From a virus: 30,975 bases of DNA. Location of the stretch: positions 1-30,975 of IMG/VR virus record IMGVR_UViG_3300010401_000068. The stretch is one strand, 5' to 3'. Each line of letters opens with the position of its first letter. Positions within the stretch are counted from its first letter, which is position 1. The notes below the pieces were generated by a model. It saw only the letters and a program-made list of their open reading frames with translations, ran no database searches and was not told the origin of the DNA. This document shows positions 7,603 to 19,468 of the stretch, piece by piece. The position numbers were made by a program, and so were the translations under genes.

Positions 7603-7617
7603 TCACATTCCTTGTGA
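7603..7617 (-). promoter_or_regulatory. Hairpin presenting the ribosome-binding site (AGGAA loop)
   Basis: TCACA-AGGAA-TGTGA on the minus strand, three bases before the ATG of the 533-aa fibre. The same 15 bases occur before the 202-aa ejection gene at 11491-11505. Confidence 0.5.
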
Positions 7618-11490: not shown

Positions 11491-11505
11491 TCACATTCCT
11501 TGTGA
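11491..11505 (-). promoter_or_regulatory. Hairpin presenting the ribosome-binding site (AGGAA loop)
   Basis: TCACA-AGGAA-TGTGA on the minus strand, two bases before the ATG of the 202-aa gene and identical to the element at 7603-7617. Confidence 0.5.
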
Positions 11506-14913: not shown

Positions 14914-16125
14914 TTATGACAGTACAACAACCGCATATTGATTGTGCCATTTGAATCCGCACAGTAAGTCAATACGCATGTAGTTTTGATAACCAAGGAT
15001 GTCACCTGTTTGAGTAACAGCAAGAGACAAGCCAGTTTCAGGGTCAACCGCTACAGATGCATAAGGTACTTGCAGCTTGTAAAGCGGAGGACAAACGATA
15101 TCTAAACCGCGTGATGGGTAAGCCACGTTTACGTTATGACTTGCAACCATTGTTACAGGAGCATTGTTAGGAACAGCATTGCTCACGTTACGGTTAGGGT
15201 TCAACGTATCAGAGATAATGCTAGGACTTACAGATACGGTGATATCACCTGTTCCGTTAGAGCTTGCATTGGCTGTTACTACGAACTGCATGTCTTGGCC
15301 AGTAGCCGCACGCCCAACAGGGTTAACAGATTGAACACCTGCGATGGAAATCAAATCACCCACTACAAAGTAGTCTGTAATATTGATAGTCGCGCCATCC
15401 ATAACAATCGTGTTACCAGAAGAGACCGCACCGTTAACAAGCAACGTATCGCCTGAGTGAAGAGTTGGGCCCGCACCAGCAACGTGATGTTTGATATTCT
15501 GAGATTGGAATATGTCAAAGTAGGACAAGTGACCAATTGCAGAGGAGCGCACGATGTCTTCGTTGAATACAGGAGTGAAGTTATTTAACAACGCGCCTTT
15601 CAAGCTAGAGCCATCTCGTACAGTCATTGCCATGTAAGCATCAGACGCAATATTTACGCCTTGCTCAAGCAATTTCGCACCCGCAGTATCTACAGTGGTA
15701 AAGGAGTTAATCGCAACACCAGCTGTACCTGTAAAGAAGTTTAGTTCTTGTTCAGCAGCGCTTGCGATGTCTTTTTCCATCTGGGTAATTACTTCCTGAA
15801 TTGCAGGAGCAATGAACAGACGGGAGAAGTCTTCAATACGCAAAGACAAATCTTGAATGGTGTATGCAATCAACGCATGGTATTGATGCGCAACCACAAT
15901 CGTTTCAACAGTTTCTATGATTGATTGAGGAGTTGCTACGGAACCATCACCAACGATGAAATGATTCTGTCTACGAACTTGTAATGTATCACCGATTTTA
16001 TAGCCAGAGGACACGAAGTCATCTTGATAAATACGTGATGCAGTCATTACAAACGGTGCATTGTTTGCGAACATTGCCAACGCAGTGTTTGACACTAGGT
16101 CGGTTGTAATAAATTGGTTAGCCAT
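14914..16125 (-). CDS. Major capsid (coat) protein, P22 gp5-like (403 aa)
   Basis: N-terminus ANQFITTDLVSNTALAMF then NNAPFVMTASRIYQDDF matches the P22 coat protein family pattern (L...LA.L..N.......V.R.Y...F...G). Further matches are the YKIGDTLQVRRQNHF strand, a Q-V-I-T-Q-M-E-KDIA helix near residue 130, and the later HLSYFDIFQSQNIKHHVAG segment. P22 coat is 430 aa, so length fits. It adopts the HK97 fold and forms the T=7-type procapsid on the scaffold encoded just upstream. GGAG eight bases before the ATG is the immediate ribosome-binding site. Two AAGGAU-loop hairpins lie in the 80-base leader, suggesting special control of this highly expressed gene. Confidence 0.9.
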   Translation of the reverse strand: MANQFITTDLVSNTALAMFANNAPFVMTASRIYQDDFVSSGYKIGDTLQVRRQNHFIVGDGSVATPQSIIETVETIVVAHQYHALIAYTIQDLSLRIEDFSRLFIAPAIQEVITQMEKDIASAAEQELNFFTGTAGVAINSFTTVDTAGAKLLEQGVNIASDAYMAMTVRDGSSLKGALLNNFTPVFNEDIVRSSAIGHLSYFDIFQSQNIKHHVAGAGPTLHSGDTLLVNGAVSSGNTIVMDGATINITDYFVVGDLISIAGVQSVNPVGRAATGQDMQFVVTANASSNGTGDITVSVSPSIISDTLNPNRNVSNAVPNNAPVTMVASHNVNVAYPSRGLDIVCPPLYKLQVPYASVAVDPETGLSLAVTQTGDILGYQNYMRIDLLCGFKWHNQYAVVVLS

Positions 16126-16135
16126 TTGCTAGTCT

Positions 16136-16155
16136 CCATTTAATCCTTTAAATGG
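16136..16155 (-). promoter_or_regulatory. AAGGAU-loop hairpin, coat leader, proximal
   Basis: On the minus strand CCATTTAA-AGGA-TTAAATGG has perfect 8-bp arms. Its 3' arm ends in GG, which is part of the GGAG that serves the coat ATG at 16125, so folding could affect initiation. Confidence 0.7.
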
Positions 16156-16182
16156 GCACATAGCAGTGTTCCAAGAGTAGCT

Positions 16183-16202
16183 AGAGTTTATCCTTAAACT
16201 CT
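16183..16202 (-). promoter_or_regulatory. AAGGAU-loop hairpin, coat leader, distal
   Basis: On the minus strand AGAGTTTA-AGGA-TAAACTCT has perfect 8-bp arms. It is 47 bases from the proximal hairpin, centre to centre, with the same loop but unrelated arm sequence. There is no start codon nearby, so here AGGA is not simply a ribosome-binding site. Confidence 0.7.
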
Positions 16203-16206
16203 TGTC

Positions 16207-17025
16207 TCACTTCCATGTGCCAGCCTTCATCCGTTGTCTGATAACAGACGCTGGAGTTTTATCCGTAACGGCATTGGCGGAGTGGGCTGGGTTCGCTCTG
16301 ACTTGTCCTAAGGGATTAGCCTTAGGTGGGCTTGACGTTTTACCGTTGTTGCCACCCATCAAAGAGAACGACAGCTTGTTCACTTCGCGTGCCTGATCTA
16401 GTGGATGGAGTCGTGAAATTCTTTCAAGTTCAGACTTGTTTTTGCCTAATCGATAAGCAACCTCAGCAGGATTTTCAACGAGTAACAGTGCGTCCCGCAC
16501 ATGTGGGGTAAACGGGACATCATCCCCTCTAACCACATCGTCAAAATCATCGTACTTGTCGGACGCTCTATCGAACTCATCATTCAAGCGTTGATACTGC
16601 TTGTGTACATGAGCTGCGCGTTGAGCATCTTGGGCTTGGCGCTCTTCGTGTTCCTTCGCTCCGAGAGCCATGCGTACGGCATGCTGTATTTTATCCTGTT
16701 CCGACATGGCTGGCGGGTTAGGCTGGCCGGGTGACGGGTAAGGATTGGAGTTGTATTGTTGTTGTTGAGGATTGGCGCTATCACCACCTAGCTGCGCTTG
16801 CATTCGCATTAAGTGCTCTTGCATTTGCCGCATTTCCCTTTGGTGTTTCTTGGCTTGCATCCCTAATCGCTTTTTAATGCTATAGGGCTCATCCTGATCT
16901 GCAATTCCCTGTTCTGCGTCTTCGCTTCCTAGCTCTTCCGCATCACCTGCGCCAACGCCACCATTCTCAACATCCTCATCATCTCCGCTTAACTGTTCAG
17001 CTAAAGCATTCTGATCTTCGTCCAT
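16207..17025 (-). CDS. Scaffolding protein, P22 gp8-like (272 aa)
   Basis: Very acidic N-terminus (DEDQNALAEQLSGDDEDVENGG), long charged helices with coiled-coil character (residues 50-85, rich in Gln, Met and Arg), a Gln/Asn/Pro-rich linker, another helical part, and a short basic C-terminus (VIRQRMKAGTWK). The C-terminal basic helix-turn-helix is what binds coat in P22 scaffold. P22 gp8 is 303 aa. It lies between portal and coat, as in P22. An in-frame ATG at 17058 with AGGG six bases upstream would add eleven residues. The ATG at 17025 behind GGAGA gives the usual acidic start and is preferred, without certainty. Confidence 0.8.
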   Translation of the reverse strand: MDEDQNALAEQLSGDDEDVENGGVGAGDAEELGSEDAEQGIADQDEPYSIKKRLGMQAKKHQREMRQMQEHLMRMQAQLGGDSANPQQQQYNSNPYPSPGQPNPPAMSEQDKIQHAVRMALGAKEHEERQAQDAQRAAHVHKQYQRLNDEFDRASDKYDDFDDVVRGDDVPFTPHVRDALLLVENPAEVAYRLGKNKSELERISRLHPLDQAREVNKLSFSLMGGNNGKTSSPPKANPLGQVRANPAHSANAVTDKTPASVIRQRMKAGTWK

Positions 17026-17087
17026 GACTTCACATCTCCATTTCGATGCATTCTGCACCCTAGACCATACGGTTGGCCTGAGACCCT

Positions 17088-17104
17088 GCGAGAATCCTTC
17101 CCGC
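17088..17104 (-). promoter_or_regulatory. AAGGAU-loop hairpin upstream of the scaffold gene
   Basis: On the minus strand GCGGGAA and TTCTCGC (one G-U pair) flank GGA, giving a 7-bp stem with loop core AAGGAU. It is 30-60 bases upstream of the possible scaffold starts and is not itself beside a start codon. Confidence 0.5.
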
Positions 17105-17141
17105 GCTTATTTAAAAGTATAGACCCATATTTCAATGTGCG

Positions 17142-17161
17142 TACCCCCATATATAGGGGTA
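17142..17161. other. Small hairpin after the portal gene
   Basis: TACCCC and GGGGTA flank an eight-base AT loop just downstream of the portal stop. There is no T-run on either strand. The 114-base gap between portal and scaffold also holds the 17088 hairpin and a TATACT hexamer on the minus strand without a convincing -35. Confidence 0.35.
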
Positions 17162-17172
17162 ACTAAAATAAA

Positions 17173-19380
17173 TTAGTCATTCCCATTCTTATGTGGATTA
17201 TTGTGTCTATGGATATCAGATAGGACTTGCGCAATTTTCGTTGAGAAGTCTTTCTCTGTTTTGTCAGCATCAAGCAATAGCTTGCCATGCTCAACTTTTA
17301 GATGTTGCTCCTCAAGACCCGCTTTGCGTTTCATTTCTTGAGCTTTTAGAATCATTTCTGCCTGTTCAAGAAGGTGTTTCTCTTTGCGAATCTTAAGCTC
17401 TTCCGCACGCTCTATAAGCTGTTGCTCTTCAAGGTGCATCTTTTGTTCGTTCATCATCATTTGTTGTTGCTGCGCTTTCATTTGCGCTTGCATCATTTGT
17501 TCTTGAGGGCTTGGCGGCTGAGGAGGTAACTGCTTGCCTTCTTCTTTAGCAATGATTTGAGGCGGTACCAATGTTTTAAAGCGCTCAGCAATCTGAGGCA
17601 TAAATTGAACGTCCAGATTCTTGGCCCATAGATCAGCAATAAGCGGGAAGGTTTGAGGATTAGCCTGTATGGTTTGTTGGAAAAACTCAAGTGCCATGTC
17701 TTTTTGGACTGCAAAAGATGGGCCTGTGTCGATTTCAATATCATAGTCGCCACTATCCAAAGCATTATCGCGAATCGGTTCACCATTCTCACTTTCACCT
17801 ATAACCTTGTTTAATGTGATGGACTCGGTTCGTCCATCCGCTTTTGAGACCACCATATGACGTTCTTGCTCACCCGCTATAACGGGCAGCAAATCAAGCA
17901 CCACACGCCCGCCTTGTTCTATGGCTTGGTTTAGGTTATCAAACCAAACAAAGGCTGACATTGACCCCTCAAGCTTGCGCTCACGGCGTGCTTTACCGGA
18001 CATGTCATGACCTTGAAGTGCCTCGTTTTCAGAGAAACCAAGGATTTCACGTATATCCTGTGACCCGCGCTGGAACTGCTGCAATAACGTACCGGATAGC
18101 TCCCATGGCGGCATTTTCTGCGGCATAGCGCCTGTTTTTGGATCGGGCTTCGCGGTAAGCATCCCTGCTTGTAATTCAGGGTTACGCCACATTTGCTCGT
18201 AGCCAACAATATTGTCGGGTGTGCCAAGCCATTGTTCACGTCTGCGGTTTTTAATTTCAGCTGCAATTTCAGAGCCAACGTAGTTAACAAACTTTTGCGC
18301 GTCTTTTGCTTCATGAATGAACGAACGGGTATATTGTTGTCCGTTAATGTAATTTGAATCACCATCTACAAAGATAATAGGCAAATATTTTGAAGGCCAA
18401 TCAGTAAACTCAATAATTTGATTCTGGGTTAAGACGTATTGGCGAATCTTGTAATCCTGACTCATCCGCTCACCAATTATTTGCGGGATGGTTTTTCTAA
18501 TCATGTCACCAACTACCTGAGACGCATCGGCAAGCTCCATTTGCATCTTGATATCTTCTTGCATGTCTTCCCACTCATCCTCGGTCACACTCCTGCCGTC
18601 ATTGAGTAGATAAAGCTTAATAGGGAACCATTCTTTACGGGCATACTTACAAACCACTATGGTGTCTCTGGTTTCCCATTGGAAATCCAAGAGTGACCTT
18701 GGGTCTGAATAGGACACGGGGTTCATTACATGCGGATAGGTTGCGTAAAATTCTTCTTTTGTGTACAGGTATTGTCGCGCACAAAAATTACCATCACCCT
18801 TATGGGGTTTTAATGCTGTAGGGTCAAATGAGGTGCGTGTGGCATCTGGTATTAATTCAAAACGAATGATTTGATTAAATGACTTCGGGCTCTCATAATC
18901 TAGGCATATTTCAAACGCACCGTAACCCATCATAAGGGCTGATCTAAATGCTGTCTGATACACTAAATCGTTTTGTGATTGATAAGATATGGTTCGTACT
19001 AAGTCGGCTCGCAGGTCTATTTGCTTTTGCGTGGATTTCCCTGTTAGTGACCTTACCATTAAGTCAGGTTTATTTTTCCGTTGTTCACCCAATACTTTCT
19101 TGGTTGTATCGTACAATTTGTTGAACGTCATCGCTGGCTTAAATAGGCGACTAAACTCCGAGCGTTCGACCGCTGACCATTGGTCACGCAGCACAAAGTT
19201 CATGTCGTCTTTACCACGAGTCACGTTCTCACCAAAGTAACCCTCCCAAAGAACGAGGTCTTCGCGTGCTTTCTTTAAAACCTCTGCCTCATCAATACCT
19301 GCTTCAGCAAGTTTTTCGTTAAGCGCATCGGTTATGCTTTCGATGTCCTCAATGGCCATCTGTTCAGCAATGATTTCCAT
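17173..19380 (-). CDS. Portal protein, P22 gp1-like (735 aa)
   Basis: Size close to P22 portal (725 aa). The N-terminal segment carries the P22-type pattern (REDLVLWEGYFGEN, RDQWSAVERSEFSR, FNKLYDTTKKVLGEQRKNKPDL). Later parts match the core with the crown-forming helices: ALMMGYGAFEICLDYES, FVDGDSNYINGQQY, and the QDIREILGFSENEALQGHDM region near residue 460. The C-terminal 110 residues are Gln/Met/Lys-rich helix and correspond to the barrel that extends into the capsid in P22. Twelve subunits form the DNA-packaging ring. It follows the Tad2-like gene; the leader between them contains competing hairpins. GGGG seven bases before the ATG supports the start. Confidence 0.92.
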   Translation of the reverse strand: MEIIAEQMAIEDIESITDALNEKLAEAGIDEAEVLKKAREDLVLWEGYFGENVTRGKDDMNFVLRDQWSAVERSEFSRLFKPAMTFNKLYDTTKKVLGEQRKNKPDLMVRSLTGKSTQKQIDLRADLVRTISYQSQNDLVYQTAFRSALMMGYGAFEICLDYESPKSFNQIIRFELIPDATRTSFDPTALKPHKGDGNFCARQYLYTKEEFYATYPHVMNPVSYSDPRSLLDFQWETRDTIVVCKYARKEWFPIKLYLLNDGRSVTEDEWEDMQEDIKMQMELADASQVVGDMIRKTIPQIIGERMSQDYKIRQYVLTQNQIIEFTDWPSKYLPIIFVDGDSNYINGQQYTRSFIHEAKDAQKFVNYVGSEIAAEIKNRRREQWLGTPDNIVGYEQMWRNPELQAGMLTAKPDPKTGAMPQKMPPWELSGTLLQQFQRGSQDIREILGFSENEALQGHDMSGKARRERKLEGSMSAFVWFDNLNQAIEQGGRVVLDLLPVIAGEQERHMVVSKADGRTESITLNKVIGESENGEPIRDNALDSGDYDIEIDTGPSFAVQKDMALEFFQQTIQANPQTFPLIADLWAKNLDVQFMPQIAERFKTLVPPQIIAKEEGKQLPPQPPSPQEQMMQAQMKAQQQQMMMNEQKMHLEEQQLIERAEELKIRKEKHLLEQAEMILKAQEMKRKAGLEEQHLKVEHGKLLLDADKTEKDFSTKIAQVLSDIHRHNNPHKNGND

Positions 19381-19425
19381 GCTTATACCCCTATTCCTTG
19401 GGTTAATGTAATCTGTCCTTAAGTA

Positions 19426-19462
19426 GCGAGTTCTACAATCCGATGTAAAACTCGCGTTTTAC
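19426..19462 (-). promoter_or_regulatory. Two mutually exclusive hairpins in the portal leader
   Basis: One stem is GTAAAAC/GTTTTAC (19445-19451 with 19456-19462), which on the minus strand encloses a GCGA (GNRA) tetraloop. A second is GCGAGTT/AACTCGC (19426-19432 with 19449-19455). The second reuses bases of the first's loop and arm, so only one can form at a time. The region lies between the Tad2-like gene stop and the portal start. Confidence 0.5.
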
Positions 19463-19468
19463 TTACTG

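What the first reader, a model, noticed from the sequence alone, without database searches (positions are those of the whole stretch)
16126..16206. Two tandem 8-bp AAGGAU hairpins in the coat-gene leader
The 81 bases between scaffold and coat are almost entirely two perfect hairpins with identical AGGA tetraloops and unrelated arms, 47 bases apart. The distal one has no start codon beside it, so its AGGA cannot simply be a ribosome-binding site. Paired GGA hairpins suit bridging by a dimeric RNA-binding protein. The proximal stem also includes part of the real coat GGAG, so folding could gate production of the major capsid protein relative to scaffold.
Basis: partly seen in the sequence, partly recalled or inferred. 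Interest (0 to 1): 0.65.

Follow-up and report, generated by a model that had tools for sequence, protein, structure and literature searches.

The report
CsrA-like RNA switch controlling phage coat
Between the scaffold and coat genes of this uncultured bacterial virus lies a conserved folded RNA whose two hairpin loops match the docking site of the bacterial global regulator CsrA/RsmA, which suggests that a host-type RNA-binding protein decides when the virus makes its shell protein.

Summary
The two hairpins are real and conserved. In 136 distinct leaders from relatives, the stems drift with compensating changes while the loops stay A-N-G-G-A-X. In 87 proximal loops A is 87/87, N is A/U/C/G = 32/31/23/1, and X is U/C/A, never G. 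That is the published high-affinity hexaloop of CsrA/RsmE, and the 39-53 nt spacing fits one dimer bridging both sites. The free N and the absence of GGAG argue against a ribosome-site reading. ANGGA hairpins also precede scaffold, portal and some tail genes; GGA loops are 7.9-fold enriched among intergenic hairpins of 21 family genomes, with no enrichment in 7 cultured phage sequences. No relative searched encodes CsrA, so the protein would be the host's, and the host is unknown. Best reading: a Csr/Rsm-type dual-hairpin translational operator on a phage head operon, probably coupled to scaffold translation. CsrA binding and the direction of regulation are inferred.

The parts
16183..16202 (-). 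Distal hairpin P2, AGAGUUUA-AGGA-UAAACUCU; ANGGAX loop AAGGAU, GGA at 16191-16193
   Evidence: Sequence; compensatory changes in 4 of 6 pairs counted
16136..16155 (-). Proximal hairpin P4, CCAUUUAA-AGGA-UUAAAUGG; GGA at 16144-16146; its 3' arm takes the GG of the coat SD
   Evidence: loop rule A-N-GGA-X over 87 leaders; compensatory changes in 2 of 7 pairs
16134..16137 (-). Coat Shine-Dalgarno GGAG, itself part of an AUGGA site
   Evidence: Sequence; position relative to the ATG
16215..16221 (-). 5' arm of P1 (GGCACAU), within the last scaffold codons
   Evidence: Predicted fold; cognate against non-cognate pairing, 0/5000 permutations
16155..16161 (-). 3' arm of P1 (AUGUGCC), abutting P4 and sharing one C with it
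16198..16204 (-). 5' strand of the alternative stem P3 (CAAGAGU), overlapping the 5' arm of P2
   Evidence: Minimum-energy fold; covariation by arm exchange
16172..16178 (-). 3' strand of P3 (ACUCUUG)
14914..16125 (-). Coat gene (P22-type major head protein, phrog_283), the controlled gene
16207..17025 (-). Scaffold gene (phrog_8865); its 3' end supplies the 5' arm of P1
17088..17104 (-). AGGAU-loop hairpin GCGGGA-AGGAU-UCUCGC in the scaffold leader
   Evidence: 54 of 69 leaders have one, with drifting stems
19387..19403 (-). Portal leader: ACCC-AAGGAAUA-GGGGU, a GGA-loop hairpin over the portal SD region
   Evidence: 25 of 49 portal leaders have such a hairpin

Best explanation
The leader is a cis-acting translational operator of the CsrA/RsmA (Csr/Rsm) type on the coat gene. 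Shown by comparison: two hairpins displaying ANGGAX loops about 47 nt apart are maintained by selection; the proximal one pairs with part of the coat SD; a stem (P1) joins the scaffold 3' end to the base of the proximal hairpin; and an alternative stem (P3) competes with the distal hairpin. Inferred: one host CsrA/RsmA dimer binds the distal and the proximal loop, holds the proximal stem shut over the SD and represses coat initiation, as in glgC (bridging) and as RsmA does when it stabilises an SD hairpin. Inferred: scaffold translation, which must open P1, changes which fold is present, so coat output depends on scaffold translation and on free CsrA. Related hairpins on scaffold, portal and tail genes would make this a late-gene regulon, perhaps relieved when late mRNA outnumbers the protein.
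For: Loop rule over 87 proximal leaders: A 87/87, N free, GGA, X never G, equal to the published Csr/Rsm hexaloop rule (PMC4005645; PMC7652899). Compensatory changes in stems, 0/500 shuffles. Distal hairpins re-created on unrelated stems, two with the CsrB repeat CAGGAUG. At least two ANGGA sites in 51/66 main-clade leaders against 4.3 in shuffles, mostly 39-53 nt apart. Four primary A(N)GGA sites within 100 nt of the coat start; 45/66 relatives have at least three sites and two pairs 10-60 nt apart. ANGGA at -15 to -35 in 86% of coat leaders against 16% shuffled, and 0-11% for most other mapped genes. GGA loops enriched 7.9-fold in intergenic hairpins of 21 family genomes, and none in 7 cultured phage sequences. 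P1 conserved by arm exchange.
Against: No csrA in the window or in 48 near-complete viral relatives and the host is unknown, so presence of CsrA is not shown. The stems (7-8 pairs) are longer than most CsrA SELEX hairpins. In the predicted equilibrium fold the distal GGA is partly paired. About 12 of 66 main-clade leaders lack a distal GGA hairpin. Distal N is mostly A (40/46), which would also suit an SD. No binding or expression data exist.
Confidence: 0.62

Rival explanations
1. The AGGA loops are ribosome features: the distal and proximal GGA act as standby or decoy Shine-Dalgarno sites shown in loops, raising 30S loading for the most heavily made protein, with no regulatory protein.
For: Several genes of the family display their own SD (AAGGA) in a hairpin loop; the distal N is mostly A, giving UAAGGA.
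Against: The proximal N is free (A32/U31/C23), which removes SD complementarity, and X is never G. The distal hairpin has no start codon near it. The proximal stem hides part of the real SD.
Confidence: 0.14
2. A phage-encoded RNA-binding protein with CsrA-like loop preference, unrelated in sequence to CsrA (possibly a head protein acting as an autoregulator), binds the hairpins and coordinates late genes.
For: The family shares the motif genome-wide but has no csrA; many small family proteins have no Pfam match.
Against: The match to the Csr/Rsm loop rule, including the free N and X, and to CsrA bridging distances needs no new protein. No candidate was identified.
Confidence: 0.12
3. The scaffold-stop region is mainly an RNase III processing or mRNA-stability element (the long P1-P3 stem) that separates scaffold from coat message; the GGA loops are secondary.
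For: P1 plus P3 form a long irregular stem in the predicted fold, and P1 persists where the middle is replaced.
Against: The leader also conserves ANGGA loops and P2 pairs that compete with P3, and the short leaders have only a short P1. A processing site needs neither the loop rule nor its repetition before other genes.
Confidence: 0.09
4. Chance or shared ancestry: hairpins that happen to carry AGGA.
For: The relatives are related to one another, and permutation tests do not fully remove ancestry.
Against: None in 300 shuffles, compensatory changes, hairpins re-created on unrelated stems, proximal hairpin kept in coats down to 75% identity (L123, L112, L184, L201).
Confidence: 0.02

Closest known systems
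CsrA-repressed mRNA leaders of the glgC type (high-affinity hairpin site upstream plus a site at the SD, bridged by one dimer)
   Same: GGA in hairpin loops, a site at the SD, spacing within 10-63 nt, a leader with three or more A(N)GGA sites.
   Different: Lies in a phage head operon, not a host metabolic gene; the distal site competes with an alternative stem; the lower stem is built from the upstream gene's coding end; binding is untested.
RsmA repression by stabilising an SD/anti-SD hairpin (described in PMC7652899)
   Same: An ANGGA loop sits on a stem whose 3' arm takes part of the SD.
   Different: Here only the GG of GGAG is paired and a second, distant site is conserved.
iraD leader: CsrA repression through translational coupling (PMC5574718)
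   Same: Combines A(N)GGA sites with an upstream reading frame and an SD-sequestering structure.
   Different: The upstream frame here is the full scaffold gene, whose 3' end pairs with the coat leader; coupling is inferred, not tested.
Phage-encoded CsrA (Vibrio phage VvAW1, coliphage PTXU04)
   Same: Shows that Csr proteins matter to phages: VvAW1 has a coat 28% identical to this one and carries a CsrA-like gene; PTXU04 csrA knockdown shrinks plaques (PMC11879866).
   Different: Those phages carry the protein; this family carries the sites but no csrA was found.

Membership tests
Csr/Rsm-regulated mRNA leader | A(N)GGA site overlapping or near the SD | tested here: met
   AAGGA at -21 and AUGGAG (the SD) at -12
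Csr/Rsm-regulated mRNA leader | At least three sites and at least two pairs 10-60 nt apart (PMC4066749) | tested here: met
   Four primary sites; 45/66 main-clade leaders meet a strict form of the rule; 10 of 42 window genes also pass, so the rule alone is weak
Csr/Rsm-regulated mRNA leader | GGA in an ANGGAX hexaloop directly on a stem | tested here: met
   Proximal loop over 87 leaders; rule from PMC4005645
Csr/Rsm-regulated mRNA leader | GGA exposed, not paired | tested here: inconclusive
   Proximal GGA about 0.92 unpaired; distal about 0.3 unpaired in the equilibrium ensemble
Csr/Rsm-regulated mRNA leader | A CsrA family protein present in the infected cell | tested here: inconclusive
   None in the phage or in 48 viral relatives; the host is unknown
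Csr/Rsm-regulated mRNA leader | Direct binding and csrA-dependent expression | not testable with these tools
   Needs gel shift, footprint and reporter assays
T4 RegB GGAG processing site | GGAG cleavage motif within the loop | tested here: not met
   X after GGA is never G in 87 proximal loops; the motif itself is recalled, not looked up
Described RNA family (Rfam 15) | Match to a covariance model | tested here: not met
   No match above gathering in the window; no credible match at E up to 5 over 16080-17200

The most novel reading that the evidence does not exclude
A whole family of podoviruses places its head and tail genes under the host's Csr/Rsm regulator through ANGGA hairpins. On the coat gene this is combined with a bistable leader whose lower stem is made of the scaffold's last codons, so that coat synthesis reads both scaffold translation and free CsrA, with abundant late mRNA titrating the protein to give a timed switch.
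Probability: 0.35. Interest if true: 0.82.

Novelty: new variant of a known kind. Interest (0 to 1): 0.62.

Why it matters
[quoted passage not shown]). None of the papers found reports a Csr-type operator on phage capsid genes. If right, this ties capsid production to the host's metabolic state and gives a directly testable site with loops, spacing and natural variants already defined. The scaffold-end stem P1 also suggests a way by which a phage could set the ratio of scaffold to coat.

Tried and rejected
DNA-level search in cultured phages: no match. Rfam: nothing. A phage-encoded CsrA: not found in the window or in 48 near-complete viral relatives. Cultured relatives as a source of host and leader: their scaffold-coat gaps are only about 15-26 nt, and in P22 the genes abut. 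Plasmids: one weak Nocardia hit. tRNA clue to the host: none. Intrinsic terminator: none called at the hairpins. RegB: no GGAG in the loops. Simple SD reading of the loops: disfavoured by the free N. A proposed ribosome-at-stop effect on SD exposure gave no useful difference, because the SD GG is paired in P4 either way. A first count of hairpins against shuffles was biased by SD enrichment and was replaced by the loop-triplet comparison. A first alignment of all scaffold leaders gave no clear fold because it mixed clades; the main-clade subset did.

Full report
CHECK OF THE OBSERVATION. The window is an IMG/VR virus record with a P22-type head module on the minus strand: terminase, portal, scaffold, coat. 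The 81-base gap between scaffold (ends at 16207) and coat (ATG at 16125) contains AGAGUUUA-AGGA-UAAACUCU and CCAUUUAA-AGGA-UUAAAUGG, 47 bases apart, as reported. They are the only two perfect 8-bp AGGA hairpins in the window, and 300 shuffles gave none. The leader folds far better than its shuffles (z = -4.7).

RELATIVES. Three scans of IMG/VR by coat protein, two by DNA pattern and one scan of genome contigs gave 136 distinct leaders, with coats 71-100% identical to this one. RNAalifold on 38 dereplicated leaders predicts the distal (P2) and proximal (P4) hairpins plus one short three-pair helix at the scaffold end. Of 13 P2/P4 pairs counted, 6 have compensatory changes and 99% of cells pair; no shuffle of 500 reaches this, and slid registers collapse. 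This set was chosen to have GGA in both loops, so conservation of GGA inside it is not evidence. The evidence lies in what was not selected for: in 87 proximal loops position 1 is A every time, position 2 is A32/U31/C23/G1, and position 6 is U55/C18/A14 and never G. With one leader per 93%-identity coat cluster, A is still at position 1 in 53 of the 55 that have a GGA there.

LOOP RULE. A-N-G-G-A-X, with N required but free, directly on a stem, is the high-affinity rule for RsmE and CsrA (PMC4005645; PMC7652899). Distal hairpins were replaced several times by unrelated stems that again show AGGA: CCAAC[AGGAU]GUUGG (L096), CUCUCGC[AGGAU]GUGAGAG (L112), GGACU[AGGAU]AGUCC (L201), CUACUAAUU[UAGGAUG]AAUUAGUAG (L154). 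The first two contain CAGGAUG, the CsrB repeat. At least two ANGGA sites lie upstream of the SD in 51 of 66 main-clade leaders against 4.3 in shuffles, mostly 39-53 nt apart, inside the 10-63 nt range bridged by one CsrA dimer. The coat leader passes the published target rule with four primary sites, although 10 of 42 window genes also pass it.

ARCHITECTURE. The predicted fold has a lower stem P1 between the last scaffold codons (GGCACAU, 16215-16221) and AUGUGCC (16155-16161), directly abutting P4. P1 is present in both clades, including leaders whose middle is short or exchanged (L083, L063, L066, L148, L153). Cognate arms pair better than non-cognate arms (main -15.9 against -14.0, sister -13.0 against -9.6 kcal/mol; 0 of 5000 permutations), and one pair switches C-G to U-A in 9 sequences. 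Inside P1 the 5' arm of P2 can also pair with a downstream strand (P3). P3 is favoured by 4.9 kcal/mol on average and partly hides the distal GGA, and both pairings co-vary by arm exchange. The leader is therefore probably bistable, with P2 the form that displays the site. Relatedness of the sequences weakens the permutation tests.

GENOME-WIDE PATTERN. The same loops precede the scaffold gene (54 of 69 leaders, stems drifting) and overlap the portal SD region (25 of 49). In 21 family genomes GGA is the most enriched triplet at loop positions 3-5: 91 against 11.5 expected in intergenic hairpins. CCU is second, as expected from its being the reverse complement. Seven cultured-phage sequences, P22 and T7 included and one partial, show no enrichment (14 against 12.4). 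Several tail and other late genes display their own SD in such a loop.

MECHANISM. Best supported: a Csr/Rsm-type operator that represses coat initiation by holding P4 over the SD while anchored at P2. Shown by sequence comparison: hairpins, loop rule, spacing, SD overlap, P1, and the P2/P3 alternative. Inferred: the identity of the protein, repression rather than activation, dependence on scaffold translation, and relief by titration. No csrA lies in the window or in 48 near-complete viral relatives, so the protein would be the host's, and the host is unknown.

COMPARISON AND NOVELTY. It works like glgC (upstream hairpin plus SD site), like RsmA-stabilised SD hairpins, and in part like iraD. 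Membership is met on the sequence features tested, inconclusive on exposure of the distal loop and on presence of the protein, and untested on binding. None of the papers found in the library reports a Csr-type operator on phage capsid genes. It is a new variant of a known kind.

Noticed in passing
17026-17110, minus strand (scaffold leader): Below the AGGAU hairpin lies a very conserved structured motif, CUCAGGGUYUCAGGCC-ACCGUA-GGYCUAGGG followed by a variable stem before the SD. Rfam shows no credible match, and a pattern scan found it only in contigs that, where checked, belong to this phage family. It may be a new structured RNA.
   Followed up: partly
L005, L014, L035, L071, L082 and L012, between scaffold stop and proximal hairpin: A different leader type with about three GGTTGACAA-like repeats some 25 nt apart replaces the distal GGA hairpin; P1 and the proximal ANGGA hairpin are mostly kept.
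   Followed up: no
19408-19466, minus strand (portal leader): A strong hairpin GCGAGUUUUACAUCGGAUUGUAGAACUCGC is conserved in form before the portal gene, but its loop keeps GGA only in part of the relatives.
   Followed up: partly
11491-11505 and 7603-7617, minus strand: The same SD hairpin TCACAAGGAATGTGA stands before two different late genes.
   Followed up: no
L083 and L082: Contigs of this phage family are binned in a Planctomycetota MAG and a Sulfuricurvum MAG, perhaps mis-binned viral contigs; the Sulfuricurvum MAG carries csrA, and none was found in the other.
   Followed up: partly
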